A stretch of 64,000 bases of DNA from Undaria pinnatifida. Taxonomy: Eukaryota; Sar; Phaeophyceae; Laminariales; Alariaceae. Positions 19,878 to 53,953 of this stretch are shown here, in pieces. The stretch's first letter is position 1, and every line of letters starts with the position of its first letter. Location of the stretch: NCBI GenBank assembly GCA_012845835.1, contig JABAKD010000023.1, positions 7,825,147-7,889,146 on the forward strand. The letters are read 5' to 3'. The position numbers were made by a program, and so were the translations under genes. The notes beneath the pieces are model-generated. The model did no database searches and was not told where the DNA came from. It saw only the letters and a program-made list of their open reading frames with translations.

Positions 19878-20146
19878 TGTTAAGATACGGCCTCGAAAGG
19901 CCTGTAGGTATCCGAATTTGAGATCATTTGGATGGGTTTCGTATGATAAGGTTGGCGGTTTATATTCGGGGAAGTGAGGAATTAGATCGGAGGCACGCGC
20001 CTCCGATCTCAGAAGCTATCCCGGGCTCTGGTGGAAACGAATAAAGCTACATCTCTACGAAGGAACGAAAGTGAGTACTCTCCGAAGACCTGCTCAATTG
20101 GCAGACCTGCAGGGGGCACTCTGTGTCCCCACCCATTAATTTAACA
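19878..20146 (+). repeat. Left LTR of the TRIM-like element
   Basis: This 269-base repeat is identical to 20,797-21,065. It contains a perfect hairpin with 11-base arms (AGATCGGAGGC / GCCTCCGATCT) around a 4-base loop, at about 19,985-20,010. It also holds a small GGCC...GGCC hairpin near the start and an AATAAA word near 20,040 that could act in polyadenylation. Confidence 0.9.
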
Positions 20147-20796
20147 AGTGGCGTCGACGGCCACCACCGCTTCTCGATAGTTCTTCATGTTTTTGAGGTA
20201 TGAGTTTTGCGTCTTTGTCTTTGGGTCGTTCGTAGTGTCCTGAGGGTCTTCATCGAGTTTTGGGGCGGTTCTTTCCATTTTTTTTCTGTCCTGCCGAACC
20301 CCCTGCTCAGTGCCGGGTCAGCGTTCGGGTAAAACGCCGCTATCTGAGGCGCAGGGCTGTCGCCTTTTTGTCATTGTTCAATTTCGCCCTGCCGACGCCC
20401 TCCTCAGCCCAGAGCCAGGGGGCGACCAGTGTACGGGTCTGTGTGTCTTCTTTTATGTTTTGTGTGTTGTATTTGTTCTGCTTTGTTTTTTTTTTAGTCT
20501 AAACACTTCCTCCCCTAGCGGGGCTGTAGGTGTTGACACCTTCCATCCCGGGTATTCGTCGCTTCCCCGTCTAACCCCCCCGCCTTGCCGATGGCCCGCG
20601 GGAGGTTTTTCGCATGACTTCTCCCTTGTGTTAGCGCCTGTGTCCCCCTCTATATCCTGGCTCCATAGCCAGACGGTTAGAGGTGTGGGAGTGGGGTTTG
20701 AGGAGCCGCATCTTCGACTCATGGTCTAGTTCGTAGAACCGGAGTTTCCCCGAATCTCCCATATTTCTGCATATGCGACTCATCAGGGTGGGCTAG

Positions 20797-21065
20797 TGTT
20801 AAGATACGGCCTCGAAAGGCCTGTAGGTATCCGAATTTGAGATCATTTGGATGGGTTTCGTATGATAAGGTTGGCGGTTTATATTCGGGGAAGTGAGGAA
20901 TTAGATCGGAGGCACGCGCCTCCGATCTCAGAAGCTATCCCGGGCTCTGGTGGAAACGAATAAAGCTACATCTCTACGAAGGAACGAAAGTGAGTACTCT
21001 CCGAAGACCTGCTCAATTGGCAGACCTGCAGGGGGCACTCTGTGTCCCCACCCATTAATTTAACA
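20797..21065 (+). repeat. Right LTR of the TRIM-like element
   Basis: Identical to the left LTR over all 269 bases as compared by eye, with the same hairpin and AATAAA word. It is followed at once by ATGG, the right target-site duplication. Confidence 0.9.
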
Positions 21066-28889: not shown

Positions 28890-29760
28890 AGAGTTCGTAC
28901 ATCGGGCCCATCAGAAGCCCCGCGTCGGACGAGAGTACTGCTCGGGTATGGGGTCGGTCCGGTGCTTGGCGGGTGATGAATCGCGCAACAGTTTGCACCT
29001 AGTGGAATCACATAGTCTCCCGATGTCGCACCGTAAGAAAGCAAAGCGCACCAGGCAGAATCTGTGACAGCCGCTGTACTATTGCAAAAGTCACGGACCG
29101 CGATCGATCGGCATCTAGACCGCCAGAGCCACCCGTCTCAGACGAGAACATTGTTCTGCAGGGGGGATCACTCCCGTGCTTGGCAGGTGGCGAGACGCTC
29201 GATAGTCTGTACCAAGGAATGTACTCGATGTTAAGATACCGAATGCGAAGGCCGTAAGGCACACCAGGCGACATCTTCAATCTTTGGATGCAGCAGCCAA
29301 AAATTCAAAAATCACCAACCGCGATCAACCGATATGTATGTAGACTGCCAGAGCGACCGGCTTGGACGCGAAGCATTTTTTTTAAAATCTGCTTTGAGAT
29401 TGGTCCTGTGCTTGGCGTGGGAGATAGTGCGCGATAGTCTGCGCCAGACAGCATTCTTAACCTTCAGGTAACGCAACTCAAAGACGAATCAAACGAAAGC
29501 ACCTATCGACCGACCTGTACCACGTACCACCTACATATTGTACCAAGACACCAGGCATTCGCTATGGTGAAACTGAAGGGGTTGGTTATCTCGTCGACGT
29601 CGCCTCCTCGAGAGGACTGCTATCAGGCCCATCACAGCCCCCAGAACACTGCTCGGCCGTCGGGTCAGCCTCGCGCTTGGTGGGCGACCACACGCGCGAT
29701 GGTCTGCAACAGGCGGCATCTTTTGATATTTGGATACTGCCACCTCAAAATCCAAAAGTC
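28890..29760 (+). repeat. Diverged tandem repeats, period about 230 bases
   Basis: The set of words GTGCTTGGCGGGTG, CGCGCGATAGTCTGCACCAGGC, a TTTGGATACTGCA-like stretch and CCGCGATCGATCGGCAT recurs near 28,960-29,110, 29,180-29,340, 29,405-29,470 and 29,660-29,740. Further members lie near 38,500, 39,075-39,210 and 39,265-39,350 in the duplicated block. The copies are old and uneven. Confidence 0.6.
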
Positions 29761-32290: not shown

Positions 32291-32700
32291 TTGGTCCCGT
32301 TCCATTCCGCACTGCCACCCACTGTACGTTTGCCACAAGCATGGCATCTTAACCTTGGGTTGTTTCCGGCCACCCACGCCGCGTTCACCACCCCGCAGAT
32401 GGCCTTCGCCCCCCACACGTACACATGGAGTACTTCGCGCAGGCCCTTGTTTGAGCACGCAGCTACCACAGTCGGCACATATTCGAGGGAGTAACGCCCG
32501 GGTCAGGGCCAGCCGGCAGTTCGAGCGGGCTGGCCCTGGCCGGGGCCGTACATCGACCGAGGTCCTCGAATATCTGCCCACTACGGTGGCTCTGTTCCCT
32601 AACAAGACCCTGCGCGAAGAACTCCGCGTCAATCTGTGGGGGGCGAAGGCAATTTGCAAGGTGATGTACGACGCGTGGGTAGCTGCTAAAAACGCGTTCG
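32290..32700. repeat. Inverted-repeat head of array A
   Basis: Left arm (about 32,345-32,500) and right arm (about 32,545-32,690) are inverted copies of each other. Peptides read from the two strands agree: LREELRVNLWGAKAICKV forward, LREVLHVYVWGAKAICGV reverse. The centre near 32,521 is the GC palindrome GGGCCAGCC...GGCTGGCCC. The right arm runs without a break into the first array unit. A related head lies at 41,965-42,340. Confidence 0.8.
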
Positions 32701-35700: not shown

Positions 35701-36000
35701 GGCTGCCACTGTGCTGCGTCCGGATGCGGTTAAGCTTGGAGAGATCGTAGAACACGTCGGTGTCACACCTATGACACCGAGGTGTTCTCTGCTCTCTTTA
35801 TGCTTAGCCCCGTCCGCAGGTGGCACAGCGGCAGCTTTTTCGGTATATGTCCCGGCCTGAAACTCGAGTTCAAGCACTTCATCGAACAGACACGGAAGCA
35901 CCAGTGAAGGTTTCAATTGGCCGAGGAAGAACCTTCGATGGTATTCATGGGGGAAAAAGTTGGGGACGACGGCTTCTTCGGCCAGAAAGTGGTTTATGTG
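32700..36000. repeat. Array A of about 420-base palindromic units
   Basis: About eight units are present. Each unit has a left arm (with CTTCGTCGGTATCTGCCCCG and CAATTGGTCGAGGAGGAACC), a loop (GATGTTGGGGACGAGGGCTT and onwards) and a right arm that is the inverted copy of the left (GGTTCCTCCTCGACCAATTG, then CGGGGCAGATACCGACGAAG). Units join at a short palindrome of the type ACCTCGGTGTCAC...GTGACACCGAGGT. Join centres are near 32,862, 33,268, 33,682, 34,095, 34,517, 34,936, 35,352 and 35,771. The loop of the first unit is reversed relative to the rest. Forward frames (33,225-33,689) and reverse frames (33,123-33,671) give nearly the same peptide (SFVGVCPGLDLVF / SFVGVRHGLDFVV) because of this symmetry. 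No protein family is recognised, and no single frame spans the array. Confidence 0.92.
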
Positions 36001-37439
36001 AGAGAAGATGAGTTGCCGCGTATTATTAAGGATTTTTGTGTGCCCTCGAAAGCTTGATTTGACTGGTATTATACTCAATCAGTGTAGTACCGGGTACACC
36101 GCATGCGGGCACCGTTTAGGATATCTGGTGCTCATGTGTGCAATATCTACGTTACCTGGCACCATGTTCTATCACCAGCCACCAGTATAAATTATTGACG
36201 GTGAGAGGTTGAGTACCCTTCAGCAGTAGAATATTGGAAATTAATTACAGTACCCACCATATATTATTAATCTCTAGATTGGGTATATAAGGGTCTCTAG
36301 GGCAGTTGGAATGGCGCAGTGTTTGTCAATTAGCGTCGCATCTCAACCCCGACAAGGGATTCGTCGAGACGTATTTTGTTCAGGGTAAAACCGACCCGTC
36401 TCTCGGGAGCAACGGATAATTCCAGTTATCGATAGCTAACTATGTTTTGGGTTGATATAGAACCACCTGACAGTTGATTCAAATCGTTTTCATCGCCCAA
36501 GGCTTGCTAGCCACGTCCGTTTGGTTTTACAAATATTTAACGGCATGCACCAGTTTACTTCTCGGCGTAGTCACTGGAGATTGATGCTCACGATTTTGTG
36601 GTCTCATGCGGTCTATAAATCACGACAGCGGGGACGTTTACTAGCCATCCCTGGGTTCGAGACCATGCCCTTCGGGTCCTAAACAGGGTCAAGGGCATAG
36701 TTTAGTCTTTGGTGCCGGTTTCGATTTACGTCACACCAACGGGAACATTTAGGAGATATTCCCGAGTTTCTTGCCTTGCCTTTCGGGTTGGGGTAGGGGG
36801 GTTTGAGTAGGTGCCGGTCTCGACGGCCGTGGGAGCTGTTGCGACAAAGAGAAAGTGCGCCTTCGATTTTCTCTCAATTTTACAACGGGTTTCACACTGT
36901 GTTGCGCTCGTCATTGACGTCCCCCTCCAGGCTCCCCCGCGCGCCTTAACCCCCACACCCCCCATCCTGCCATCCCGATATTCGGGCGACTCCGGCCCCA
37001 ATGCCGACTGCACAACCAGCGAATAAGACGAGTCCGACATCGCGGACTCCTCGTATTCGTTTACCGTGTCATCGTCGTCGGATACAGAGCCATCTCAACA
37101 ACGGTGTGGCAGGATGGGGGTGGGGGGGCGTAAGTGGTGCGGAGGAGCGGGGGGGGGGGGCGCCAATGTCGAGTGGAACACACCGAGAAAAGCCATGTGT
37201 TGAGCGAGAGAAGATGAATATCCTCGACGATGGCGGATACGACGCCGTCAATGCCCAACCAACTGGGTCTTCCCCCGTTCACTTTCAGAAATTTCCTGCA
37301 GCACTGCGAGGTACTTCCAAATTTTATAATATACAAACAATACCACCTAAAATGCTTTTTGTCCCATCCACTTCATAGTGTAGCTATGAATTATGGAGTA
37401 TATTCATTTAGCACGCAGAAATAATCGTTTGCTCCCATC
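36001..37439. other. Spacer between the two array loci
   Basis: There is no gene. A diverged tandem pair with a unit of about 115 bases lies at roughly 36,615-36,835; both members end GGTGCCGGTTTCGA or GGTGCCGGTCTCGA. Near 36,655 is GGGTTCGAGACC, and near 36,310 TGGCGCAGTG; these resemble the internal pol III boxes of tRNA genes but are not followed by a foldable tRNA. G-runs lie near 37,115-37,160. Confidence 0.45.
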
Positions 37440-38030
37440 TACCTCAAGTTTTCCCCCCACCCCATACCACCCACACCCACACCTTCCCCCCCCGGCCACA
37501 CCAAACATCAGAGTCCGCCAGCGTTAATAAACACTCCCGAGAGGTGACGTCACCTATTTACCTTTCGAGCTATCCATGCAGCGGTTCCAATTAATGTAAA
37601 CGGTCTTCTCCGCCGCGCCCACCATCGTATTCTAGACCTGGCACCACACGTGTAGCAAGCTACTGGTTTGTTCAGCCTAAATATGTTGGAACCCCCCCCC
37701 CCCCCCACTTAATATGCCGTTCGCTTCTCACCGGTCATACGTCACTAGGAAACCCAATGAACCGGCGTATTTTACAGCCGTCACATTTTGTCCCCCCCCG
37801 AAATGGGGTTAATAGTTCCCGTGCACAGATTGATTAACATTACCTTGTTGACACTGATACAGGCTAGTTCTACGGGGAGTCGCCGGCCAATATTCGTGAG
37901 GACGACAAACCCGGTAACAGGCGGTGTCGGAGTATCACAAATTTCTACAACAACAGCTTGCAAAAATGAGTTTTGACGATATCTTGGATCTCACAGCTGT
38001 AGTGTAACATATTTTTTTCAATATAAAGCC
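37440..38030 (+). repeat. Dispersed repeat family R1, third copy
   Basis: A-B order in forward orientation. Landmarks: AGAGTCCGCCAGCGTTAATAA, CCACCATCGTATTCTAGACC, TTACAGCCGTCACATTTTGT, GTGCACAGATTGATTAACA, GGGGAGTCGCCGGCC, ATGAGTTTTGACGATATCTT and GATCTCACAGCTGTAGTGT. It is more diverged than the pair near 8.3 and 12.8 kb. Confidence 0.7.
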
Positions 38031-38057
38031 GGCACACAGTATTCATAGAAAGGCAGT

Positions 38058-38200
38058 CAAACGCGTGACGCACCTTCTTTGTCGCCGGCAGCTGATGGTT
38101 TCGTACACGTGGGAGACAAACAAGACGTGTCGTCGGACTTCTTCTTCGTTTCCCACGAAGAAGCCGATTGTATCAGCTGCCGGTAAGGAAGAAGGGAGGT
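38058..38200. repeat. Nested foldback structure
   Basis: Outer arms of about 30 bases include CCGGCAGCTGAT and ATCAGCTGCCGG, a perfect 12-base inverted pair about 88 bases apart, extended by GCACCT...AGGTGC. Inside lies a second hairpin, CTTCTTCGT / ACGAAGAAG with a 5-base loop. This could be a small foldback transposon or a structured RNA; no proof of either. Confidence 0.7.
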
Positions 38201-38756
38201 GCATCATATGTTCGGTTGCGCTCATGCTCTGTGTCGGTCTCATATTTTACGAGATGGAAGCACCTCTCAGTGTCGCAAGCAGTTACCTGGTGTTGCGGGA
38301 TCGATCATTCGGTCATTTCGCTTCCTGCCCAGCTAGCAGGAAGCTCGCTTGGCGCCACTCTTAACAAGCCGTAGTCCCAGACTGGTATCTATGTATCTGC
38401 CGGGTACTTGCCTTCCTTGTCGCGTGTTTTCATGCGAGTCACAGGCTCGCCGATTTTTGACATGCTCTTGTTCCGCATTTAGGCGACTGCGTTTGCTGCC
38501 TAGTCTGTACCAGGCGGCATCGTTTCATATTTGGATACTGCCGCTGCAAAATCTAAAAGCAGCAAAACGCAACAGATCTACATATGCAAAGGATGTAGCC
38601 AAGTTGCCAGGCATACAGCTCGGCATCAATAGGTTGTTGCTCTCCCGGCTGTAGCCTGTGGGAGATCGGATTGTTAACAGGTCAGGTCTGAACACGGCGG
38701 CCTCTGTTCGTCGACCTCCAAATGCGTACACACAGCTAGCACCTGAAAGCGTGGTG

Positions 38757-38925
38757 GTGACTGGAGACGGTGGCTCAGAGCTTTCTTTCCCCCTTTCCTG
38801 TATTTTCTTCCGGCCGTCGAGCCTGACTCCGTCTCATAAGGGGCCAAAAAACGATTCAGGCTCGACGGCCGGATGATACTACATGAAAGAGATAGAGAAT
38901 TATGTGCCACCGTCTCCAGTTGCGG
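38757..38925. repeat. Inverted duplication at an insertion border
   Basis: CCGGCCGTCGAGCCTGA (38,811-38,827) and its inverse TCAGGCTCGACGGCCGG (38,855-38,871) form perfect 17-base arms. Similarity extends outward to CTGGAGACGGTGGC and GCCACCGTCTCCAG, giving arms of about 70 bases. Copy A of the duplication has only the left arm, so the right arm came in with the 500-base extra segment of copy B. Confidence 0.8.
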
Positions 38926-41308
38926 CCACGCGTTCCCGTGTTGGCTGCGAGTACGCCTTCAGAGGTAGATCTACGGTTACTGTAGTATATCATCTTGATC
39001 ACTGGACACTGCAGGTTTAAGATGCAAATGTGACCCGGCAAGATCTTTGATCGTGGGATATGGCATCCCATCTGCACCAGGCGGTATCTTTCCAATCTTG
39101 AGATATCGTATCTTCAAGATGCAGGGCGCACCCTTGGGCAGTATCTATGGTTCTTTTTGGCAGAGTACCCTATAATTGCAGCACTCACAAACCTCGATCG
39201 ATCGACGTGTTTTGCGTCAGATCCGGTGGCAAGGAGAACGAGCACACTGCTCTGCCGCGAGGTCCTCGGTCGTGCATGGCCGGTGAAAACGCGCGCGATA
39301 GTCTGCGACAGGCACTATCTTTGAATTTCGGATATCGCATCCGCATACATCAATACTAGTGGTACTCTGTACCAGGTGTTGGGTACAGCAATCATGTCTC
39401 TTTGGACGTTCTTTGGCGCGGTGCCCCAGTTTACCGCAGTATGAATATATCTTGTGACGGCTCGTATTGTTGTTAGAGTAGTCCAACACACCGTGATAGT
39501 GCGGGGTGCCACTTCAGTGCGGATAGTGATATCTGGCAAAAAACCGCATTATATATGATGAGGGTCCACGCCTATACTACTGTACGACACTGTACCGCAG
39601 CTGAAACTATCAAAAGTCTCAAGTCGTAATGTACCAGGGTACCAGGTATATATCGATGATGAAAGCGAGGTGATTGTTGCTCTTTCCGCCTTCAGAGTCT
39701 GTGGGTGCTTGATTTCTCTTTTTCTCGAGGACATGTAGTAGTAGCTCGCCCCGATGTCGCCAAATACCTACCGAAGCACAAGCCTCCTAGAGCTATCCTC
39801 TCCCAGCCGCCCTGTTTGTTCCATGAAGCGAATCCACAAGTAAGTCTGTGTAGAGATATCAATGTTTTCGTATTTCTGCACTGACACATTCTTCAGTCTT
39901 TATTCTGTAACTACCGTACGTAGATGTATAGACTATAGTTTGCCCCATATGGCACATTTTCCACTCGAAGAAGTGTGCAGTATAGACTAGATATATATAG
40001 ACTATATAGTCTACATACGTAGACCGGGCAAGCAGTAGCATAAGCAATCCCTCTGCCACGATGGCCTCGTTTCCCTCTCCCGGCACGCTTCCGACACTCA
40101 CCACGCTCTTGCAAAACATACGATATACACTCTATAGTCATAGACTAGATAGCTAGACTAGACTATACTCATAATAGAAAGTACGACATTTGCGCATGGC
40201 ATGGTAAAGGTGCACCTTTACTTTCCTACAAGATTGTTGGCTTGAGGAATTGTATACCTCACCCACAACGTAAGTTTCCCAGAAAATTGAAAGGGTAACC
40301 CGATTGCCAAACGCATGTGTATATCCCTTTGACCTTTGATAATGCAAACAAAGCATGGCATCCCGAACGCTCTGGAGCCAAGCACCCCCGTCATTCGGCA
40401 GCAAAATTGTCCCAAAGTGCTGCTGCTGCTGCTGCCTCTATCGCAGCACGCGTCTCCGGTGCCTGGCAACTCTCACCAGCGCTATAGAAGGTGAATCACA
40501 CTATTCAATAGGCACACCCCGGCCGTACCGCAATCGATCGTTATGTGTGTGTTTTGTTCGTGTCGAACCTTCGTTGCGCTCACGGACATCACCAGCCAGC
40601 CCAGTTTCTGTCCTGTTTACTCATCCTACTGTAGAGAGACGCCGCACAAAGTACCGGGGTGACGTGTAGCAACAACGTACTGTTGCGAGTATATGATACC
40701 AGGCATATATCCTTGGTGATAAAAAAAGGTTGTTGCTCTAGGCCATTAATAGTCCCCGCGCTCTTTTTGTCTCTGTCGATGATGCCGTGTTGTCCATTGC
40801 GTGCCTTCCTATATATTGCCGGTTGGATAGTGCCTTGACTGCCGGTGCGCCGGTGATATCGCTGTGGCACCACTGGCCCCCGATGTACTACTAGACACCG
40901 CATCGGTACTACACAGTGCTATACACCCAATTATGGCTGTGTCCGATACACTGTAAGTATTGTTGGCTGACACACATTGCGTCTACAGGGAGACCATCAC
41001 TTAATACCAGGTATATATGTAGATCATCCTAATATCGCTTAACGCCTGCACTGCTGGAAACCCTGTTCAGGGACAACTTTACTTGAACTTAGTATATTGA
41101 GGAACTTCGTGCTCCCAAAGGGGTTGAGCCTGACATCCACAACGCCATGATGCGGCAACGGTTTGGCTACCCTCTCCGAATCCCGTCGGTCTATCTAGTG
41201 CGCGAGGTGCATACAGAGACAGATGCTGCGCAGATGTTTATTGTAGTCAAGTGTACTGCTGTAACCTATAACCAGCTAAGCATTCCTATGATACGCGTCA
41301 TAGATACT

Positions 41309-41506
41309 CGTTCTTGTGCGATTCAAATAAATACCTCTGGTACCTTTGTTATGTACAATATGTCAAGTTTGAATATGTACCTGTAACTGCGGCGTCGTTT
41401 TTGTCATACTCGTTATTGTGCGATTCAAATAAATACCTCTGGTACCTTTGTTATGTACAATATGTCAAGTTTGAATATGTACCTGTAACTGCGGCGTCGT
41501 TTTTGT
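41309..41506 (+). repeat. 98-base tandem duplication
   Basis: Two adjacent units, each starting GTTCTTGTGCGATTC or GTTATTGTGCGATTC and ending in GCGGCGTCGTTTTTGTC, are nearly identical. Copy A of the larger block has one unit, so this is a recent local event in copy B. Confidence 0.9.
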
Positions 41507-41964
41507 CCATGGCACACATGATCCACCCGAACAAGTGTACTATTACTACTGCAAATATCTAGAGCACACCTGGTGAAGCAGTACTTTGAACTGTGTAATC
41601 TCTCTACCGTGACCATGCATGTAGGCGATCCTGCCATCCTTAGTTTTGCCCATCATTGTCGCACTTCCTCCGACCTTTGCCCCTCATATGCAATTCGTGC
41701 TGAGTGATCGTCTTGTGCCTGATGTCCTCCACCGTGTACTTTCCTGTGATTTTGTGGTGATGGCTTGCCAAGTACCAGGTACACGCCAGGATGCCGCCAT
41801 GTGCCGCCATAGATGTAGCATTTTTGGGATAAGTTATGTATGTCTACAGGACTCCTAGACTAATGACTACACTGCCCAATATCGATAGCGGTTTGGTCAC
41901 GTTTCTTTCCGCACTACCACTCAAATCACATTTACCACAAGTATATCACCTTCACCCCCTTTTC

Positions 41965-42340
41965 AAACGGGTTGCTTCAGGCCACCCACGCGTCGTTCAC
42001 CACTTTGCAAAAAATCCTTTTCTCCAGACATAGACGCGGAGTGCTTCGTGCATGGCCATATTGGATCACAGAGCCTCCTCAGCCATCACATACTCGACGA
42101 TCTCGGTCGCAGCAAGGCCCGGAATAGGGCCAGCGGGCGCTTCGAGCCGGCTGGCCCCCGCTCGCGCCTCACGGCGACCAAGGTCTTCGGGTTTGGGCCG
42201 ACTGAGGTGGCTCTGTTCTCAAACAAGACCCTGCGCGAAGCACTCCGTGTCCTTGTCTGGGGATCGAAAGCTATTTTTCAATGTGGTGGGCCACGCGTGG
42301 GTAGCCGGAAGCAACCCATTCGAAGAGGGGGAGTCTACCG
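41965..42340. repeat. Inverted-repeat head of array B
   Basis: Left arm (about 41,979-42,110) and right arm (about 42,170-42,306) are inverted copies around a GC palindrome near 42,145 (GGGCCAGCGG...CCGGCTGGCCC). It matches the head at 32,290-32,700; the forward peptide is again LREALRVLVWGSKAI. The right arm passes into the first array unit through GGGGGAGTCTACCGCTGGTG. Confidence 0.8.
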
Positions 42341-45300
42341 CTGGTGCTACCGTGACAAAATGCGATGTGTAAGCCAGGGCAGATACCGACGAAGCTGCTG
42401 CTGTGCTACATTCGCATGTAGTTCAGCTCGAAGTCATCATTTAAGACCTTCGAGTCACACAATGACACAGAGGAGTTCCAAGCTCTCTTCGAGCTTAAAC
42501 CCATCCGGAGGCGGTACAGCGGCAGCTTCGTCGGTATCTTTCCCGGATTGGACCTCGTCTATAAGTGCTTTAGCAAACAGGCACCGCAGCATAAGTGGAG
42601 GACTCACTTGCTCGAGGAGGAACCATCGGTGGTGTTCGTGGTGAAATATGTTGAGGATGATGGCCTCTCCGGGCACACAATGCTGGACGGGAGAGAGGGT
42701 GACGAGTATCATCCATGGTTCTACCTCGACCAATGGAGTACTCCACTGGTGTTTTCGTGCCTGTTTGATGAATTACCTAATGACGAGGCCCAAGCTGGTG
42801 TAGATACCGATCAAGCTGCCGCTGTGCTGCGTCCGAGTGCGGTTAGGCTCGAAGAGATCATAAAACACATCCGTTTCATACATATTTTGACACCAAGCAG
42901 AGAACACCTCGGTGTCATACCTGGCTTGATATCGACGTATTCTCTGCTATCTTCGACGTTGACAGCATCCGGAAGCGGCACAGTCCCAGCTTCGTCGGTG
43001 TTTGTCCCGGCTTGGACCGCGTGTTGAAGTAAATCGTCCAACAGGCACGGCAGCACCAGTACAGCATTCAATTGGTCGAGGCACTCACCACCGACAGTGT
43101 TCGTAGAGAAAGATGTTGGGGACGAGGGATTCTTCGCCCACACAATTGTGAATGGGAGATATGGTGGCGACTACCGTTGATTGTTTTTTCTCGTCCAGAT
43201 CAGTAACCAGTGGTTTTTGACGAGGTCTAAGCTGCGGCAGATACCGACCAACCTGCCGCTGTGCCGTATCCGCATGCGGTTAAGATCTAGGAGAGCCTAG
43301 ACACAAAGGTGTTCCACGCTCCGTTCAAGCTTAACCGCATCCGGACGCAGCACAGCCGATCTTTGTCGGTATCTGTCCATGCATGAACTCGTGTTCAAGC
43401 ACTTCGTCGAACGGAAACGGAAGCACCTGCAATACTCAATTGGTCAAGGATGATCCATCGGTGGTATCGTGGTGGATGATGATGGAACCGAGGGCTTCCT
43501 CGGCCACCTAAGGTTAGACGGGAGAGAGGGCGACGAATACCATCGATAGTTCCTCATCGACCAATGCAGTACATCAGTGGTGCTTCCATGAATGCTTGAT
43601 GAAGTGCTTGAACACGAGGTCAAAGTTAGGGCAGATACCGACGAAGCTGCCGCTGGGTTGCGTTCAGGTGTGATTAAGCTGGAAGAGTTCATAGAACACC
43701 TCCGCGTCACACTACAACACCGAGGTGTTCAATGCTCTCTTCGAGCTTAACCGCAACCGCACAAGACACAGCGGTATCTTCGTCGGTATTTGTCGCGGTA
43801 TGGATCTCGTGTGCAAGTACATCGTCGAACGCAAACGGCAGCGCCAGTGGAGGACTCAATTGGTCGAGGAAGATCTATCGATGCTATTCGGGGTGCAAGA
43901 TGTCGGAGACAAGGGCGTCTTCGGCCACAAATTTATTGACGGGAGAGGGTGACGAATACCATCGACAGTATCCCCTCGACAAATTGAGTGCACCAGAGGT
44001 GCCTCTGTGCCTGTTAGACGAAGAGCTTGAACACGAGGTGAAAACTGGGGCAGACACCGAAGAAGCTGCCATTGTGCGGCGTGGGGATGAGGTTAAGCTC
44101 GAATTGATACTAGAACACCTCTTTGTCACACTACTACATGGATGTGTTCTATTCTCTCTTCGAGCTGTACCGTATCCGCAGAAGGAACAGAGGCAGTTTC
44201 GTCCGTATATGTCCCTGCTTGAACCTCGTGATCATGTACTTCGTCAACCAGACACGGCAGCACCAGTAGAGAGCTCAATTGGTCGAGGAGGACCTATCGG
44301 TGGTATTCGTGGTGGATGATGATGGAACCGAGGGCTTCTTCCGCCATACGGTGTTGGACAGGAGAGAGGGTGATGAATACAATCGATGGTTTCTCCGCGA
44401 CCACTTGAGTACACCAGTGGTGCGTCTGTGCCTGTTTGACGAAGTGCTTCAATACGAGATTCAAGCTTCCGCAGAATCAAACGAACCTGCAGCTGTGCTG
44501 CGTGCGGATGTGGTTCAGCTCTAAGAGGTCATTGAACACCTCCGTGTCACACTAGTACACCGAGGTGTTCTATGCTCTTTTCGAGCTTTACCACATCCGA
44601 AGACGGCTTAGCGGCAGCTTCGTCGGTATCTGTTGCGGAATGCACCTCACCTTATAGTATCTGGTCATGCTGGCACGGCAGCACCAGTATAATAGACAAC
44701 TGGTCGAGGAGGAGGCGTCGGTAGTGTTCGTGGTGGATGATGTTAGAACCGAGGGCTTTTTTCGATAAACAACGTCGAACAGGAGAGAGGGTGGTGAATA
44801 TCATCCACGATATCTCCGCGACCAATTGAGTACACCAGTGGTGCTTCTGTGTCTGTTTGACGAAGTTCTTGAACACGGGGTGCAAGCGTGGGCAAATACC
44901 GGAGAAGCTCTTGCTGTGCTGTGTGCAGATGTGGTTCAGGCTAAAGAGGCCATTGAACACCTCCGTGTTAACGTAGTACACCGAGGTCTATGTGCTACCT
45001 TCGTACTTTACCGCATCTGCAGAAGGCATAGCGGAATCTTCGCGGGCATCTGTTAGGCATGCACCTCACCCTTAAGTATCTGGTCATGGTGACATGGCAG
45101 CACCAGTGAGCACTCAAATGGCCAAGTAGGAGCCGTCGGTGGTGTTCGTGGTGAATGATGTCAGAACCGCGGGCTTCGTCCGCCAGACAATGTTGGACGG
45201 GAAAAAGCGTGGAAAATACAATCGATTATGTCTCCGCGACCAATTGACGACACCACTGGTGCTTCTGTGTCTGTTTGACGAAGTGCTTGAACACGAGGTC

Positions 45301-48300
45301 CAAGCTGCGACTCAGCTGCCGCTGTGCTGCGTGCCGACGCGGTTCAGCTCGAAGAGATAATTGATCACCTCCGTGTCACACTAGTACACGGAGGTGTTCT
45401 ATGCTCTCTTCGAGCTTTATCGCATCCGCAAAAGGCATTGCGGCAGCTTCGCCGGAATCTGTTGCGGAATGCACCTCACCTTATAGTATCTCGTCGTGTT
45501 GGCCCGGCAGCACCAGTGAACTAGACAATTGGTCGAGGAGGAGGCGTCGGTAGTGTTCGTGGTGGATGATGACGGAACCGAGGGCTTCTTCCGCCTAACA
45601 ATGTTGGGCCGGAGAGAGGGTAATGAATACCATCGATGACGTCTAGGCGGCCAATTGAGTAAACCAGTGGTGCTTTTCTGTCTGCTTGAGGTGCTTGAAC
45701 ACGAGATCTAAGTTTGTCGATAATCCGACGAAGCCGCCGCTGCGCTGCGTATGGATACGGTTCAGCTGGAAAGTATCATTGAACACCCCTGTGTCACACT
45801 AGTACACCGAGGTGTTCTATGCTTCCTTCGGGCTTCACCGCATCTGCAGAAGGCATAGCGGCAGCTTCGTCGGTATGTATTGAAGTATGCACCTCACCTT
45901 ATAGTATCTGGTCATGCTGGCACGGCAGCACCAGAAGATTTGACAATTTGTCAAGGAGGAGCCGTCGATGGTGTTCGTGGTGGATGATGTCGGAACCGAG
46001 GGCTTCTTTCGCCGGCAAATGTTGGACTGGAGAGACGGTGATGAATGCCATCGATGGTGTCTCGGCGGCCAATTGACTACACCAGTGGTGCTTCAGTGTC
46101 TGTTGGACGAAGTGCTTGAACACGACGTACACGCTTGGGCAGATACCGACGAAGCTGCCGCTGTGCTGCGTGCGGATGTGGGTTTAGTTTAAAGAGGCCA
46201 TAGAGTACCTCCGTGTCACGCTAGTACACCGAGGTGTTCTATGCTCTCTTCGATATTGACCGCATCCTCAAAAGGCATGTCGGCACCTCCGTCGGTATCG
46301 ATTGAGGCATGCACCTCACCTTTACGTATATGGTGATGCTGACCCGGCAGCACTAGTATATTAGACAACTGGTCGAGGAGGAGCCGTCGGTGGTGTTGGT
46401 GGTGGATGATGTCAGAACCGAGGGCTTCTTCGGCCAGACCATGGTGGACGGGAGAGAGGGTGATGAACACCATCGATGATGTCTCTCTGACCAATTGAGT
46501 ACACCAGTGGTGCTCTTGTGTCTGTTTGAAGAAGTGCCTGAACACGAGGTGCAAGTTTGGGCAGATACCGAAGATGCCCCCGTTGTGCTGCGATCAGATG
46601 TGGTTCAGGCTAAAGAGGTCATTGAACACCTCCATGTCACCGTAGTACACCGTGTTGTTCTGTGCTATCTTTGAGGTCTATCAAATCCGTAGACGGTATA
46701 TCGGCAACTTCGCCGGTATCTGTTGAGGCATGAACCTCACCTTTACGTACCTGGTCATGTTGACACGGCAGCACAAATGAGCACTCAATTGGTCAAGCAG
46801 GACCTATCGGTGGTGTTCGCGGCGGATGATGTGAGAACCGAGGGCTTCTTCCGGCAGACAATGTTGGGCAAGAGAGAGCGTGGTGAATGCTATCGATGAT
46901 GTTACCGCAACCAATTCAGAACACCACTGGTGCTGTTGTGTCTGTTTGACGAAGTGCTTGAACACGAGGTCCAAGCTTGGGGATAATCCGACGAAGCTGC
47001 CGCTGTGCTGCGTCCGGTTACGGTTCAGCTCGAAAACATCATTGAACACCCCTGTGTCACACTAATACACCGAGGTGTTCTGTGTTTTCTTCGAGCTTCA
47101 CCGCATCTGCCAAAAGCATAGCGGCAGCTTCGTCGGTATGTATTGAAGTATGCACCTCACCTTTAAGTATCTGGTCATGCCGGTACGGCAGCACTAGCAG
47201 ATTAGACAATTGGTCGAGGAGGCCCTATCGGTGGTGTTCGCGGCGGATGATGTGAGAACCGAAGGCTTCTTCCGGCAGACAATGTTGGGCGGGGGAAAGC
47301 GTGGTGAATACCATCGATGATGGTACCGCGACCAATTCAGTACACCACTGGTGCTGTTGTGTCTGTGTGACGAAGTGCTTGAACACGAGGTCCAAGCTAG
47401 GGGATAATCCGACGAAGCTGCCGCTGTGCTGCATCCGGATGCCGTTCAGCTCGAAAACATCATTGAACACCCCTCTGTCACACTAATACACCGAGGTGTT
47501 CTATGCTTCCTTCGAGCTTCACCGCATCTGCCGAAGACATAGCGGCAGCTTCGTTGGAATCTGTTGGGAAATGCACCTTGCCTTCAAGTATCTGGTCATG
47601 CTGATACGGCAGCACCAGTAGATTAGACAATTGATCGAGGAGGAGCCGTCGGTGGTGCTCGTGGTGGATGATGTTGGAACCGAGGGCATCTTTCGCCAGA
47701 CAGTGTTGGACAGGAGAGAGGGTGATAAAAACCATCGATGATGGATCCGCGACCAATTTTCTACACCACTGGTGCTTCTGTGTCTGTTTGACGAAGTGCT
47801 TGAACACGAGGTGCAAACTGGGGCAGATGCCGACGAAGCTCCCGCTGTGCTGCGTGCGGATGTGGTTCAGGCTAAAGAGGTCGTTAAAAACCTCCGTGTC
47901 ACCGTAGTACACCGAGGTGTTCCATGCTCTCTTCGAGGTTTACCGCATCTGCAGAAGGCATAGCGGCAGCTTCGCCGGTATCTGTTGAGAAATGCATCTC
48001 ACCTTTAAGTATCTGGTCGGGTTGGCACGGCAGCACTAGCAGATTAGACAATTGGTCGAGAAGGACCTATCGGTGGTGTTCGCGGCGGATGATGTGAGAA
48101 CCGAAGGCTTCTTCCGGCAGACAATGTTGGGCGGGAGAAAGCGTGGTGAATACCATCGATGATGTTACCGCGACCAATTGAGTACACCACTGGTGCTGTT
48201 GTGTCTGTTTGACGAAGTTCTTGAACACGAGGTCCAAGCTTGGGGATAATCCGACGAAGCTGCCGCTGTGCTGCGTCCGGTTGCGGTGCATCTCGAAAAC

Positions 48301-50015
48301 ATCATTGAACACCCCTGTGTCACACTAATACACTGAGGTGTTCTATGCTTCCTTCGAGCTTCACCGCATCTGCCGAAGGCATAGCGGCAGCTTTGTCGGA
48401 ATTTGTTGCAGTATGCACCTCACCTTTAAGTATCTGGTCATGCTGATACGGCAGCACCAGTAGATTCGACAATTGGTCGAGGAGGAGCCGTCGGTGGTGC
48501 TCGTGGTGGATGATGTTGGAACCGATGGCATCTTTCGCCAGACAGTGTTGGACAGGAAAGAGGGTGATGAAAACCATCGATGATGTCTCCGCGACCAATT
48601 GACTACACCACTGCTGCTTCTGTGTCTGTTTGACGAAGTGCTTGAACACGAGGTACAAACTTGGGCAGATGCCGACGAAGCTCCCGCTGTGCTGCGTGCG
48701 GATGTGGTTCAGGCTAAAGAGGTCGTTGAAAAACTCCGTGTCACATTAGTACACCGAGGTGTTCCATGCTCTCTTCGAGGTTTACCGCATCTGCAGAAGG
48801 CATAGCGGCAGCTTCGCCCGTATCTGTTGAGAAATGCACCTCACCTTCAAGTATCTGGTCGGGTTGGCACGGCAGCACTAGTAGATTAGACAATTGGTCG
48901 AGGAGGAGCCGTCGGTGGTGTTCGCGGCGGATGATGTTGGAACCGAGGGCTTCTTCCGCCAGACAATGTTGGACGGGAGAGAGAGGGTGATAAACGCCAT
49001 CGATGATGTCTCGGCGGCCAATTGAGTACACCGGTAGCGCTTCTGTTTCTGTGTGACGAACTGCTTGAACACGAGGAGCAAGCGTGGGCAGATACCGACG
49101 AAGCTACCGCTGTGCTGCGTTCGAATGTTGTTCATTTCCAATTGGTAATAAAACACCCCTGTGTACCACCACTACGCCGAGGTGTTATATGATCTTTTCG
49201 AGCTTCACCGCATCCGCAGAAGACATAGCGGCAGCTTCGTCGGTATCTGTTGCGGTATGAACCTCGCCTTCAAGTATCTGATCATGCTGGCACGGCAGCA
49301 CCAGCAACGTACTCAATTGGTCGAGGAGGACCTATGGGTTGTACACGTGGTGGATAATGTCGGAACTGAGGGTTTCATTCGCCAACCAATGTTGGACGGG
49401 AGAGAGGGTGTCGAATACCATCGATGGTTTATCCTCGGCCACTTGAATACACCAGTTTTGGAGCTGGGCCTGTTTGACGAAGACCTTTTTCGACGAGATC
49501 CAACCTGCACCAAACCGACGACGCTGCCGCAGTGCTGCATCTGGGTGCGGTTAAGCTTGGAGGAGGCACCTCGGTGTCACACTATGACACCAGGTGTGTT
49601 CTGTGCTCTCTTCGAGCTTAGCCGCATCCGGAGATGGGATAGCGGCAGCTTCGTCGCCATCTGGCCCGGCTAGGACCTCGCCTATATGTACTTCGTCGAA
49701 CAGGGCCGGATGCACCCGTGCAGCACTCCATTGGTCGAGGAAGCACCATCGAGGGTATTGGTGGTGGAATATGTTGGGGACAACGGCTTCTTCAGCCAGA
49801 CAACGTTGGACGGTAGATACGGTGACGAATATCGTCGATGGTTCCTCTTCGAACAACTGAGTACTCCGGTGATGCTTGCGTCCCTATTCGACGATGTACC
49901 TAAAGACGAGCCCCAAGCCGTGGCAAGATACCTACGGCTCTGCCGCTGTGCTGCGTCTGGATGTGGTTGAGCTCGAAGAGATAGTAGAACACTTCCGTGT
50001 CATACGAGCTCTCTT
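42340..50015. repeat. Array B of about 420-base palindromic units
   Basis: About 18 units share the design of array A: arm, loop, inverted arm, short palindromic join. Joins lie near 42,460, 42,900, 43,300, 43,713, 44,135, 44,553, 44,975, 45,382, 45,803, 46,224, 46,645, 47,065, 47,483, 47,905, 48,326, 48,748, 49,172 and 49,588. The join at 45,369-45,394 has perfect 11-base arms (CACCTCCGTGT / ACACGGAGGTG). Arms within a unit match at roughly 70-75 percent. Neighbouring units in 46,800-48,900 match each other much better, including an 840-base two-unit repeat (47,225-48,065 and 48,065-48,905). Forward words such as EGFFRQTMLDGREGDEYHRW and reverse words such as HSGSFVGICPRLHLVFKHF recur, interrupted by stops. 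No protein family is recognised. Confidence 0.92.
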
Positions 50016-50027
50016 GATCCTATAGGT

Positions 50028-50810
50028 ATGTTCAACCCAGCAACCGTGCCTGAAATTACCGGCGTGTGCATCGGCTGGGCTCGTAAACCAATTCTAGTAT
50101 TAGCATATAGCGTAAACCCTAGATGTTGGTATTTTGCCCTAGTGTTTCTCTTACTAAGCAAACCCGATTGTTATGTCCGCCCCCCCACCCTTGTGAAAGC
50201 AGATCTACCGGAGGGGACCCTATTTCTCTCCCAGAGGGGGACTCGACCGAAAACAGCTTCACCAATCACCAGAAGCAGGATAAAGACGGGGGGGGGATAC
50301 CACCGCTCGTTATTTGAGTCTGTCCGCACTACGGAGCATGGACATCACGATAAATACCTTGTGGTTTTCGACCACGCCCTCCGAATAATATTCATAATGT
50401 GCCGGCGTGCCTCTCGGATCGTTCTCTTAGCTGTCCTGGTTCATTCTCTTGTGGAGATACGTACTCTTGGAAACGGCCGATATGTACCGACGGACGATGA
50501 CCTTTCTTCGACAAGCGCTGCTTTATACCTGTTGTCCGCACTGCGTTGCGGTTGCGGGCTTGTTCACGTAGTAGCAAAACTGATGTTTTTCCCCGGCGGA
50601 TGTCCACGCCAATTTTTCGATCCAGGCCGTGACTTTTCGCACACGTCTTCTATGTGTCCTTGCAACTACCTCGCCTATCGGTTTTTGTTCCTTCTGTCTT
50701 CCTGCTTTTTCGTTAGTGAAGTTTTTTTGGATAATGTGGACCACCTTACCATACGTATTTTCGTCGAGACAGAAAAAGAAGCCCCCCCCCAGATCGGAAT
50801 GGCGATGTAG
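50028..50810 (+). CDS. Hypothetical ORF after array B
   Basis: This is a 260-codon frame starting just outside the last array unit. It has several hydrophobic stretches (PILVLAYSV..., RASRIVLLAVLVHSL, LAYRFLFLLSSCFF) that could be membrane segments, and Cys-rich parts, but no known family. Part of it (about 50,400-50,500) is an inverted copy of 51,385-51,480, which suggests repeat-derived sequence rather than a gene. No promoter or neighbour supports a role. Confidence 0.15.
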   Translation: MFNPATVPEITGVCIGWARKPILVLAYSVNPRCWYFALVFLLLSKPDCYVRPPTLVKADLPEGTLFLSQRGTRPKTASPITRSRIKTGGGYHRSLFESVRTTEHGHHDKYLVVFDHALRIIFIMCRRASRIVLLAVLVHSLVEIRTLGNGRYVPTDDDLSSTSAALYLLSALRCGCGLVHVVAKLMFFPGGCPRQFFDPGRDFSHTSSMCPCNYLAYRFLFLLSSCFFVSEVFLDNVDHLTIRIFVETEKEAPPQIGMAM

Positions 50811-53300
50811 AACGCGTGTGAAAAATTGAGTGTTTACTTCTCAAAAACGGCGTGGACATGATGACTTTTTTACGTAAGAATGATCAAGGTACGATACTTC
50901 CATCAAATGACATGGTTTTAGTTCAGTACCCATCTTTTTCGCTAGATTCTGCTTACTGTTGAACACAAGCAGGTCAGAGCTTCGAGTTTTTGCGCTAACC
51001 GATCTACAGACATGCTTTGGAGTACGTCCAATCCGATTGTGCAAAATGCGGCGCAATTTTCGTTTTCGTCCCTCGCGTGGGACAAGCCAATTTGATATCG
51101 AAAAATCTGAAAGCCTGTCATGGGTACATACGAGTTTCGCTCCTAGAGACAGCCCGAGAGCCCGCTATATAGAGACAACCCGAGGCCGTTGAAAAAAAAA
51201 TGGCCATGCCACCTCTCTTCCACAGGTCATGGGGGTCAGCACGATACCAAATATTCACCATTTGACTAGATATTGCGAGCGGCATTCGTGCGGGAGAGGA
51301 TTTGGGGGGTTTTACTTGAAATAGGCTGCATGCAGGGTTAAAAATTCGTTTGAGGAAGCGTTTGATGAAGAAACGTCATCGTCGGCAGGAACCCGCGGTC
51401 GGCACATATCCACAGGTTCCCCGGTAGACGTATCTCGACAAGTAATTGAATCAACACCGCTCAAAAGAACGACCCGAGAGGAGGTGGTTTGTTCAATTCC
51501 GCAACGTAGTCGACAAGAGGATGACCCAGAACCTCTCAAAAAAAGCGATCCGAGAGGTGTTCTGTTCATATTCCGCAACTTTGGTACAAGAGCGCCGGCG
51601 GTGGGGAGTGAAAATCATAAGTGAAGCAGGTCTACACGCAACAAGTGAATGCACCGGATTCACTGAATAGGCAAGAAGTTCCAAGAGTTGTTGTGCAAGG
51701 GGGTTGGCTATCATCGCCACAACTCGCCGGCTGAACGTAGCGACCGTTTCCCGTTTGGGGTATCTCGACCAATGACGTTCCTGGGTGGTGTTGTTTATCG
51801 CAGCCAAGTGCGCAATGGGAAATTTTATTTCCAAGCCAAACAATAATATCGGGAGAACAACACGGGTGGTGGAGAGAAAACAAAGTTTAGCAGCGCTGCG
51901 ACGGGTTGGAATTCACCATTACAGTCGGTTATTGTGCGGTCCCGAACACACCCTCCTCTCATCGCTTTCAGGCGACACCATCAATGTCATCGGTGCATTC
52001 ACCGCAAGCAAAGGCAAACGGCGAGAGGTAAACGATGTCATCACGGGTCTCTCACATCGCCACCCTTTCGCATGCCGCCTCCTTACACGCCTATTTGGCC
52101 CTTAGGGTTCCCTGTAGGGGATATGCGAGAACGGGTGGCGAAGTGAGAAGCGCACAGCTGTCAGGTGAATCATTCACAACTCGCTGTTCTTGTTTGTGTG
52201 TGGTGAAAAATCACCGGTAATGTATTGAATATGCTGCCTGAACGCGATGGGAGGAGGACATGTTAGGAAGCAGCCAATATCCGACAGCGCCGCCGCATTC
52301 ACACTTGTCCCAGCGCTGCTCAAGTTTGTTTGCTATTCGCCACTCTCGCTCTCCTCTCCATGACGTTAATTTGCTTGAAAATCAAATCTTCTAATGCGCA
52401 TTTCGCCTCCTTACACATTTCGGCCCTACCGATAGTGCCGGTGCCGGTAGCCCTAAGGTCCAAAAAGGCGTGTATGGAGGCGTTTTGCGAAAACCGGTGG
52501 CGATGTGACACAAGCACGGGCGATCGTTTACAACCCGCTGTTAGAGTTTGGCTTTGGTGAATATTCGAAAATGGGGCGTGGTGGTGTAAGGAAAGCGCGG
52601 GCTATGGTTTAGAACTCGGTGTTAGCCCTCACGCTCGTCGTTAGCGCTCGAGTTTGGTGAATGCGCTGGTTATATTGGTGGTGCCGCCTGAAAGCGATGA
52701 AAGGTAGAAATGTTCGGACGCGACAAATTAAAACGTGTGAAAACCGTACTCATCGCGCATTAGTTATTGGTGATCCTTCCTGTGGTCATGCGTGGTCATG
52801 CAACAACATATCGCGCCTGACTCTTGAGCAGGAGGGAACCATGACGAAAATTTCGGATTACAATAGTTTTGGTCGACGTTCGATGTAGTTCGGCCCAATG
52901 AAAGACACGCGCTTACCTCGTCGAGGGTGCCTTGCCATTTGGTCGTTAAGACAGTTGACATAAAGTTCAAGAAATACCAACAAGAGCTTCTAACCCTAAG
53001 GCTTCCCATAATTAAACCCGTTGGGGCAATACCCTTTGTCTCGAGTGCGCAGGGTGCCCCATCCGTTTTCTTGAAGTCGTGATTAGCTCCCACGCGTGCT
53101 GTGATAAGAGCATAAATATTAATTTAAAGAAGAAATCTTGTGAAGGCGTGGTTCCTTCACCCAAATGAGCGGATCATCGTTTCTGCTTCTCTCTTCGTTC
53201 GTCGCTTACCTTGGCGATGGGGTTGTTCGTCGTTCTGCACATAATTGTCTCAATATCAAGTTATGTTTGGTAAGGAATCGACTTCACGAAGCATCGAGTT
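50811..53300. other. Inverted-repeat debris, no gene
   Basis: The segment 51,385-51,480 (CGGTCGGCACATATCC, GACGTATCTCGACAAG, AAAGAACGACCCGAGAGG) is inverted relative to 50,400-50,500. The word CGA[CT]CCGAGAGG with TTCCGCAAC also repeats directly near 51,470 and 51,550. A stronger inverted pair at 52,050-52,507 is listed separately. No coding sequence is supported. Confidence 0.5.
52050..52507. repeat. Inverted repeat with about 65-base arms
   Basis: Left arm 52,050-52,113 (CATCGCCACCCTTTCGCA, CCTCCTTACACGCCTATTTG, CCCTTAGGG) pairs with right arm 52,440-52,507 (CCCTAAGGTCCAAAAAGGCG, TGTATGGAGGCG, CCGGTGGCGATG). About 325 bases lie between. This could be a small non-autonomous DNA element; target-site duplications were not found. 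Confidence 0.65.
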
Positions 53301-53552: not shown

Positions 53553-53953
53553 TGACATCCGCCGTCAAAATGTCAACCAGCAGATCCAAGGAAGAAATAT
53601 ATATTCGAGGTAGAAGGTTTTATGCCTTCGGACCCGAAGTGGGACATGTGTGATACAACTGGTATCGTGCCAAAATAGTAGGAGGCAAGACAGACCGCCA
53701 GCTCCTGGCCACCAAGAATCGATATATAACGCCAATTCCGCTGTACCATGATTGTTGCTTGGATGAGTTCACCCCCACCCTCCCACGTCCACAGCCTTTC
53801 TTCCACGACGGCGTATCCCACTGTAGTGTGAGTCTCCAGCGGGTTATGTCACAAATATTTGATCATCCTCCCGAATACAGACCAACATTATGCTGTACCC
53901 GGTACCGTATATGGAATGTAAGTACGAGAGCACAACGTCATGAATGTCTGCAG

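What the first reader, a model, noticed from the sequence alone, without database searches (positions are those of the whole stretch)
42340..50015. Tandem array whose every 420-base unit is itself an inverted repeat
Each of about 18 units consists of a roughly 175-base arm, a 65-base loop, the same arm inverted, and a short palindromic join. Ordinary satellites are head-to-tail; here the building block is a long palindrome, so the DNA could extrude hairpins and a transcript would fold into a chain of long double-stranded stems. I know of no named family with this design. Seen: the symmetry and spacing. Inferred: hairpin RNA or a structural chromosome role.
Basis: partly seen in the sequence, partly recalled or inferred. 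Interest (0 to 1): 0.9.

Follow-up and report, generated by a model that had tools for sequence, protein, structure and literature searches.

The report
Kelp gene copies turned into hairpins
In the seaweed Undaria, broken copies of one little-known gene have become long rows of forward-and-backward copies of its coding sequence; RNA copied from them would fold into chains of hairpins, a shape cells can use to switch genes off, but the DNA has decayed like ordinary non-working sequence.

Summary
The inverted-repeat array is real: 18 join centres scoring 0.45-0.70 (shuffles reach 0.45), arms up to 178 nt, joins near 9 nt. The genome matches the Undaria pinnatifida assembly.

It is not an anonymous satellite. 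Each unit is sense and antisense copies of codons about 77-131 and 143-175 of a 189-codon lineage-specific gene. Five intact copies exist; codons 1-131 look constrained. A palindrome of codons about 12-75 precedes it. A second array, with 8 centres, lies at 32,754-35,913. Both recur in the same order on C56. Two other degenerate copies form inverted repeats of different architecture; one is not inverted.

The design has precedents: dyad satellites and tandem hairpin-RNA loci such as Drosophila hp-CG4068. Transcripts would fold strongly (z -9 to -16), but array A diverges like its flanks, partner arms show almost no co-evolution, and siRNA-length matches to the genes do not significantly exceed shuffles. 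Most likely a decaying gene-derived array; a hairpin-silencing role is possible and untested.

The parts
41955..42138 (-). left arm of the entry palindrome before array B: antisense copy of gene codons 75-13
   Evidence: blastn to an intact gene, 74.2% identity; self-palindrome 41955-42331, 73%
42141..42331 (+). right arm of the entry palindrome before array B: sense copy of gene codons 12-75
   Evidence: 77.0% identity to the intact gene
42367..50004 (.). array B: 18 join centres; alternating antisense (codons about 131-77) and sense (about 77-131 and 143-175) copies, unit about 421 bases; ends in an antisense copy, gene 3' end missing
32357..32517 (-). left arm of the entry palindrome before array A: antisense codons 70-13
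   Evidence: 79.5% identity
32517..32716 (+). right arm of the entry palindrome before array A: sense codons 11-77
   Evidence: 81.0% identity
32754..35913 (.). array A: 8 join centres (32,859 to 35,768), same design; its units are 56-74% identical to units of array B
35914..36052 (+). natural 3' end of the gene copy after array A: sense codons 143-189
   Evidence: 71.9% identity
30050..32350 (+). 5' flank of gene copy A, collinear with the 5' flank of intact copies up to the start-codon region
   Evidence: 31142-32350 matches the C30:9.295M copy at 71%, to position 9252 of that stretch, where the start codon is at 9243; start region aligned
38501..41941 (+). 5' flank of gene copy B (39,358-40,821 is 71% identical to 30,050-31,545; 41,483-41,941 matches the intact copy to just upstream of its start codon)
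36053..38400 (+). 3' flank of gene copy A; 82.5% identical to its C56 counterpart
50025..50408 (+). first of three 3' flank pieces after array B that match the C34 gene region (others 52,517-52,768 and 53,597-53,888)
   Evidence: 66-70% identity

Best explanation
Shown: the array consists of sense and antisense copies of the coding sequence of a 189-codon lineage-specific gene, inside a degenerate paralogue of that gene. The paralogue keeps the gene's 5' flank; copy A also keeps its 3' end, copy B does not. Codons about 12-75 form one palindrome. Codons about 77-131 plus 143-175 form the repeated inverted unit. Inferred: inverted duplication at breakpoints near codons 12 and 77 made the palindromes. 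The roughly 421-base sense/antisense dimer was then amplified in an early burst, and array B was later expanded and homogenised by unequal exchange. The locus is now a decaying by-product with no sequence-level function that I can detect. If it is transcribed from the retained gene 5' end, its RNA would be a chain of hairpins of about 160 bp that Dicer could cut.
For: Gene-to-array map: 29 blast hits in A and 55 in B, alternating in strand. Five copies without internal stops, 90-100% identical in protein; codons 1-131 have dN/dS 0.16, 0.16, 0.19 and 0.37 in the four comparisons of C34 with the others. The consensus of the array arms translates to nearly the gene protein. Arms differ from the gene mainly at third codon positions (0.25/0.18/0.46), while differences from the arm consensus are close to flat (0.21/0.17/0.24; expected from base composition 0.20/0.19/0.21): coding ancestry, then decay. 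37 of 52 arms carry a stop or a frame-shifting indel. Array A against its C56 counterpart: array 82.9%, arms 82.8%, loops 82.6%, entry palindrome 80-83%, 5' flank 81-85%, 3' flank 82.5%. Loop-adjacent arms are no more complementary than non-partner arms (permutation p 0.85 in B, 0.47 in A). Pairs formed in A are kept in the C56 copy equally often for partners (0.805 of 739, 0.792 of 645) and controls (0.804 of 3821). Units B6-B16 are the most alike, B13 and B15 at 94%, and the ends are diverged, as unequal exchange would give.
Against: Three inverted architectures arose from this one gene (window type, shared with C56; C2:16,550,471-16,551,435, a 965-base palindrome 82.5% self-complementary; C30:9.764-9.771 Mb), against one degenerate copy found without inversion in the 2,401 bases read; plain decay does not explain this recurrence. 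In-frame stops in the arms are fewer than a star-tree neutral simulation gives (47 against 62.5, sd 7.8; 0.02 of simulations at or below), though shared ancestry was not modelled. Codon position 2 is the least variable in the units (permutation p 0.06 and 0.014 in the two arms, 0.57 in the loop). Join-adjacent arms are very slightly more complementary than others (B 0.642 against 0.640, p 0.046; A 0.690 against 0.681, p 0.066; B5-B16 p 0.001). Where both sides of a pair changed between A and C56, pairing was restored in 13 of 22 partner pairs and 34 of 72 control pairs. The arm consensus has 13 G-U against 4 A-C mismatches on the + strand.
Confidence: 0.6

Rival explanations
1. Hairpin-RNA (hpRNA) silencing locus. 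The array is transcribed from the retained gene 5' end, the stems are cut into about 21-nt siRNAs, loaded into the single brown-algal Argonaute, and repress the intact gene copies, as the tandem hp-CG4068 and inverted-exon hpRNA loci do in Drosophila. Transcription, dicing and repression are all inferred.
For: Arms are homologous to a coding gene and face each other. Predicted RNA folds: -187.8 kcal/mol (z -16.0), -238 (z -16.0), -201.5 (z -9.4), 100 shuffles each; C2 palindrome -815 kcal/mol, 88% paired, no shuffles run. Inverted repeats arose in three architectures. The 5' flank up to the start-codon region is kept. The genome has six Piwi-domain matches, all at one place on C38, and one partial RNase III match on C22. 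Six 21-mers of array A are perfectly antisense to intact genes, longest run 24. [quoted passage not shown]
Against: Those matches do not significantly exceed shuffles (21-mers: A antisense 6 against 2.45, P 0.16; A sense 0; B antisense 0; B sense 9 against 2.65, P 0.088). Almost no sign of compensatory evolution, and a flank-like rate. Arm pairing has fallen to 64-69% Watson-Crick. In Ectocarpus, Argonaute mutants change few transcripts, and the authors favour translational repression by miRNAs (PMC12867755, abstract and passages). No small-RNA or RNA data could be consulted.
Confidence: 0.3
2. Dyad satellite with a structural chromosome role: hairpin or cruciform extrusion organises chromatin, as proposed for Tribolium satellites.
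For: Monomers contain two inversely oriented subunits, as in T. brevicornis satellite DNA.
Against: Full-length units were found only at two places, in four arrays, plus short pieces elsewhere; the Tribolium examples are abundant. Arms are 31-36% mismatched on average, which disfavours cruciform extrusion (general knowledge). The sequence comes from a coding gene.
Confidence: 0.04
3. The array still encodes protein: a repeat protein with open frames on both strands.
For: The unit consensus is open for 140 codons in one minus-strand frame, and in one plus-strand frame except for a stop at its first codon and one inside. One public protein prediction (P0086, 166 aa, 93% identity over 73% of the query) matches the ORF over unit B1.
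Against: The consensus unit is 421 bases, so the frame is lost from one unit to the next. The 52 arms carry 47 stops and 45 frame-shifting indels. Open frames follow from the coding ancestry.
Confidence: 0.03
4. Foldback transposon or MITE amplification, with the palindromes as terminal inverted repeats.
For: Long inverted repeats within duplicated DNA.
Against: The inverted sequence is the coding sequence of a gene, and the full-length units lie in paralogues of that gene. No transposase gene was recognised among the seven window ORFs scanned with Pfam, which did not cover all of the loci. Termini and target-site duplications were not established.
Confidence: 0.03

Closest known systems
Drosophila tandem hairpin-RNA loci: hp-CG4068 (esi-2), 20 copies in D. 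melanogaster and 9 in D. simulans; hp-tHMG cluster; hp58 (inverted copy of an exon of a nearby gene). PMC10317233 and PMC8127995, passages read
   Same: Tandem inverted-repeat units, or inverted copies of a gene's exon; copy number changes quickly; hairpins arise repeatedly in families related to their targets.
   Different: There, Dicer-dependent siRNAs are shown, and target repression for several. Here neither is tested; pairing is imperfect, complementarity to the gene is not significantly above shuffles, and the organism is a brown alga.
Dyad satellites: Tribolium brevicornis 1061-bp satellite with about 470-bp inverted segments; TmSat2 of T. madens (704 bp, about 300-bp inverted segments); Trichogramma brassicae 385-bp satellite with 80-bp inverted repeats. 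PMC13081366, abstract and passages read
   Same: Each tandem monomer is itself an inverted repeat.
   Different: Those are satellites, abundant in Tribolium. Here there are four low-copy arrays derived from a coding sequence inside gene copies.
Phytophthora 21-nt small-RNA loci from inverted repeats and gene families. PMC3804510, passages read
   Same: Related stramenopile lineage; inverted repeats and multigene families are small-RNA sources.
   Different: Small RNAs were sequenced there; the passages I read describe no tandem array of this kind.
Inverted gene duplications that silence paralogues or give rise to plant miRNA genes (soybean CHS, maize Muk, rice Lgc1, Arabidopsis founder inverted duplications). 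Recalled, not read
   Same: Inverted duplication of a gene fragment making a hairpin against its relatives.
   Different: Those, as I recall them, are single inverted duplications; the analogue here is the C2 locus rather than the window array.

Membership tests
Dyad satellite DNA (Tribolium type) | tandem monomers each made of two inversely oriented subunits | tested here: met
Dyad satellite DNA (Tribolium type) | abundant, long (peri)centromeric arrays | tested here: not met
   full-length units at two places, four arrays, in 511 Mb; counts are lower bounds by the tool's own note; centromere position unknown
hpRNA locus (Drosophila type) | inverted-repeat arms homologous to a protein-coding gene | tested here: met
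   gene open and constrained
hpRNA locus (Drosophila type) | long stems in the predicted transcript | tested here: met
hpRNA locus (Drosophila type) | siRNA-length stretches fully complementary to the target | tested here: inconclusive
   A: six antisense 21-mers; B: none antisense, nine sense; not significantly above shuffles
hpRNA locus (Drosophila type) | transcribed; Dicer-dependent 21-22 nt siRNAs; target de-repressed without them | not testable with these tools
   no RNA data held
hpRNA locus (Drosophila type) | pairing maintained by selection (supporting, not strictly defining) | tested here: not met
   a very small join-adjacent excess (0.002-0.009) is the only hint in favour there
Degenerate paralogue (pseudogene) array | disrupted frame and neutral divergence | tested here: met
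   47 stops and 45 frame-shifting indels in 52 arms; array A diverges like its flanks
Foldback transposon / MITE | dispersed copies with target-site duplications or a mobilising protein | tested here: inconclusive
   full-length units only at gene paralogues; termini and duplications not established
Curated RNA family | match in Rfam 15 | tested here: not met
   0 matches at gathering threshold over the 64,000-base window

The most novel reading that the evidence does not exclude
Undaria has an hpRNA-like system. Paralogues of a recently multiplying, lineage-specific gene have been converted into hairpin genes at least three separate times (window type, C2, C30:9.76 Mb). Their siRNAs restrain the five intact copies on C30 and C34, an arms race like Dox/Nmy/Tmy in Drosophila simulans, possibly against a selfish or driving gene. 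It would be the first such case in brown algae that I know of; of the 196 papers found by my one search on it, none of the 10 listed reports one by title or abstract start.
Probability: 0.22. Interest if true: 0.85.

Novelty: new variant of a known kind. Interest (0 to 1): 0.52.

Why it matters
It shows, at sequence level, how a coding sequence becomes a tandem palindromic array that is easily mistaken for a satellite, and that one gene family can do so repeatedly. Brown algae surveyed so far have a single Argonaute, and Ectocarpus has mainly 21-nt small RNAs (PMC12867755, abstract and passages), so whether long gene-derived hairpins enter that pathway is a clean, open test. A positive answer would extend hairpin-based control of multicopy genes to a lineage that evolved multicellularity independently.

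Tried and rejected
Mobile element: the first comparison looked like a large dispersed non-coding element (no frame over 250 codons in the listings of L038, L039 and L043). The alignment showed that the shared segment is a gene with flanks, so I dropped that reading. Viral origin: a viral-contig scan with the gene gave 45 pattern matches but no relative; the collection may omit near records. Gene identity: no Pfam family over its cut-off, the best being DUF6655 at E 0.3. Two protein searches gave 3 and 2 unnamed hits. Protein-coding array: rejected. Selection on pairing: tested three ways, with at most a very small effect. A literature search on inverted gene-derived arrays, asking for five of six terms, gave no paper.

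Limits: simulates a star tree. permutes arms within one array. Genome searches score only the best candidates, so counts are lower bounds. The C30:11.84 Mb and C36:6.84 Mb flank matches were not read. Searches use arms cut at fixed centres and aligned automatically, so irregular units (B2, B3, B7) are noisier.
Full report
OBSERVATION. The reported structure is there. Tandem Repeats Finder gives a 421-base period over 43,437-50,002. Inverted-symmetry centres recur about every 210 bases: 18 short joins scoring 0.45-0.70 and 14 of 18 expected loops scoring 0.45-0.60 over 100-base arms, against maxima of 0.41-0.45 in five shuffles. Arm pairs reach 178 nt with a 62-nt loop, or 174 nt across a 9-nt join. 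One search aligned 24 join-to-join units (17 from B, 7 from A): pairwise identity runs from 56% to 94%, and the middle of B is the most homogeneous.

A SECOND ARRAY AND A SECOND LOCUS. Masking array B and searching the window with it found a diverged copy at about 32.7-36.0 kb (array A). Its flanks are collinear with those of B: 29,702-30,049 with 38,503-38,851 (83%), 30,050-31,545 with 39,358-40,821 (71%), 31,852-33,263 with 41,442-42,862 (68%). In the whole genome (511,146,479 bases, 68 contigs) one unit has 81 matches. They fall in A and B, in two corresponding arrays on C56 in the same order, and as short partial matches at C30:8.69, 9.29, 9.35 and 9.76 Mb and C2:16.55 Mb. C30 and C56 align collinearly through array A and its spacer.

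ORGANISM. Of the 85 hits of the copia-like ORF at 8-1555, those that bear a species name are from Ectocarpus (4) and an Undaria gene set (1). Contig C34 is 16,510,065 bases long, exactly the scaffold N50 reported for Undaria pinnatifida (PMC7058681, passages). I take the window to be that assembly, on this match.

WHAT THE SEQUENCE IS. At C34:14.181 Mb and C30:9.352, 9.295, 9.213 and 8.694 Mb the same sequence is not a palindrome but one open frame starting MASSSAAAGVQFEP or a close variant. It encodes 189 aa at C30:9.295 Mb; the 8.694-Mb copy lacks the stop at that place and stays open for some 25 codons more. A protein search of the genome gave 118 matches (150 of 152 candidates scored). Five are these copies, without internal stops. 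Twenty are distant paralogues at 37-42% identity on C57 (5), C20 (14) and C2:13.04 Mb (1). The rest lie at the window arrays, C56, C2:16.55 Mb, C30:9.76-9.77 Mb and C30:1.02 Mb. Comparing C34 with each of the other four, dN/dS over codons 1-131 is 0.16, 0.16, 0.19 and 0.37, and over the acidic tail 0.41-0.84. No Pfam family reaches its cut-off. The gene's function is unknown, and I have no evidence on introns.

MAP. In B, codons 75-13 antisense (41,955-42,138) are followed by 12-75 sense (42,141-42,331), then by alternating antisense (about 131-77) and sense (77-131 plus 143-175) to 50,004: 55 hits. Array A has the same plan (29 hits) and ends in the natural gene end, codons 143-189, at 35,914-36,052. 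C56 has 49 hits of the same kind. B has lost the gene's 3' end and continues into DNA that lies further downstream at C34. The 5' flank is kept to the start-codon region: 31,142-32,350 and 41,483-41,941 against C30:9.295 Mb.

OTHER DEGENERATE COPIES. C2:16,550,471-16,551,435 is one 965-base palindrome, 82.5% self-complementary, inside a gene copy with 5' and 3' ends. C30:9,763,845-9,771,366 holds 38 gene pieces on both strands and many inverted pairs. These architectures differ from the window's. One degenerate copy, C30:1,024,488-1,024,814, shows no inversion in the 2,401 bases read; it begins at codon 79, close to the codon-77 breakpoint of the arrays. I did not read two further flank matches, C30:11.84 Mb and C36:6.84 Mb.

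HOW IT EVOLVED. In A, sense arms resemble sense arms (0.671) and antisense arms resemble antisense arms (0.706) about as much as opposite arms resemble each other (0.68): I read this as an early burst followed by independent decay. In B, like arms are closer (0.75) than opposite arms (0.64), as unequal exchange of the 421-base dimer would give. Arms differ from the gene mostly at third codon positions, but from their own consensus almost evenly. In A against its C56 counterpart, arms, loops and flanks diverge alike.

DOES IT WORK AS A HAIRPIN? Predicted RNA folds are very strong: 357 nt at -187.8 kcal/mol (z -16.0), 377 nt at -238 (z -16.0), 424 nt at -201.5 (z -9.4). But the sequence shows almost no maintenance of pairing. 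Loop-adjacent partners are no better matched than non-partners (p 0.85 in B, 0.47 in A). Join-adjacent partners are slightly better (B p 0.046, A p 0.066, B5-B16 p 0.001), by 0.002-0.009. Pairs are retained in C56 at 0.805 and 0.792 for partners and 0.804 for controls; of pairs changed on both sides, 13 of 22 partners and 34 of 72 controls pair again. The G-U excess over A-C is present in B, weak in A, and equally present in non-adjacent pairs; one of three entry palindromes does not show it. Perfect 21-mers to the intact genes: A 6 antisense and 0 sense, B 0 antisense and 9 sense; none significantly exceeds shuffled arms (smallest P 0.088). The genome has six Piwi matches at one place on C38 and one partial RNase III match on C22, searched exon by exon. 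This agrees with the reported single Argonaute of brown algae (PMC12867755); the same paper sees few transcript changes in Ectocarpus argonaute mutants, which speaks against strong siRNA-type cleavage there.

VERDICT. The origin is clear: a gene-derived inverted-tandem array. Most likely it is a decaying by-product (0.6). An hpRNA-type silencing role (0.3) has the right anatomy, a retained 5' flank and recurrence in its favour, and lacks any clear sign of selection. In what it could work like, the closest system is hp-CG4068 and other gene-derived hpRNAs; in monomer design, the Tribolium dyad satellites. Membership in the first is untested for its defining small RNAs; membership in the second fails on abundance.

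Noticed in passing
window 36890-37190 and 38711-38969: Two further palindromes (symmetry scores 0.64 at 37,039 and 0.55 at 38,841) lie between arrays A and B, outside the coding-derived sequence.
   Followed up: partly
L055 (C30:1024488-1024814) and array breakpoints near codon 77: The only degenerate copy found without inversion starts at codon 79, next to the breakpoint at codon 77 used in both arrays; a run of G precedes it in the gene. A recurrent breakpoint is possible.
   Followed up: partly
C20:6.43-7.35 Mb and C57:4.61-4.85 Mb: Distant paralogues of the gene (37-42% identity) form clusters of 14 and 5 copies; the one C20 copy whose frame was read lies in a 578-codon open frame with a long acidic part upstream of the domain.
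   Followed up: partly
window 16869-18650: 593-codon ORF with about 50 copies of an 18-base repeat encoding a TLAPGA-type motif between hydrophobic ends; Pfam's Hexapep match is probably a composition effect.
   Followed up: no
window 8-2438 and 55748-57292: A copia-type retrotransposon with integrase and weak reverse-transcriptase matches in two overlapping frames, and a non-LTR-like reverse transcriptase on the minus strand.
   Followed up: no
window 19877-20147 and 20796-21066: A 271-base direct repeat, 100% identical, 648 bases apart: possibly a young small LTR-type element.
   Followed up: no
window 41304-41507: Two adjacent 102-base copies, 99% identical: a recent tandem duplication in the 5' flank of array B.
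   Followed up: no
C30:8698338-8702615 (L047): Several 97-100% identical copies of a roughly 270-base sequence in both orientations, with 96-97% palindromes up to 800 bases; possibly a recently active inverted element.
   Followed up: no
C30:9203500-9205319 (L040): A 296-base tandem repeat, copies 97-100% identical, about 7 kb from one intact gene copy; it may extend beyond the stretch read.
   Followed up: no
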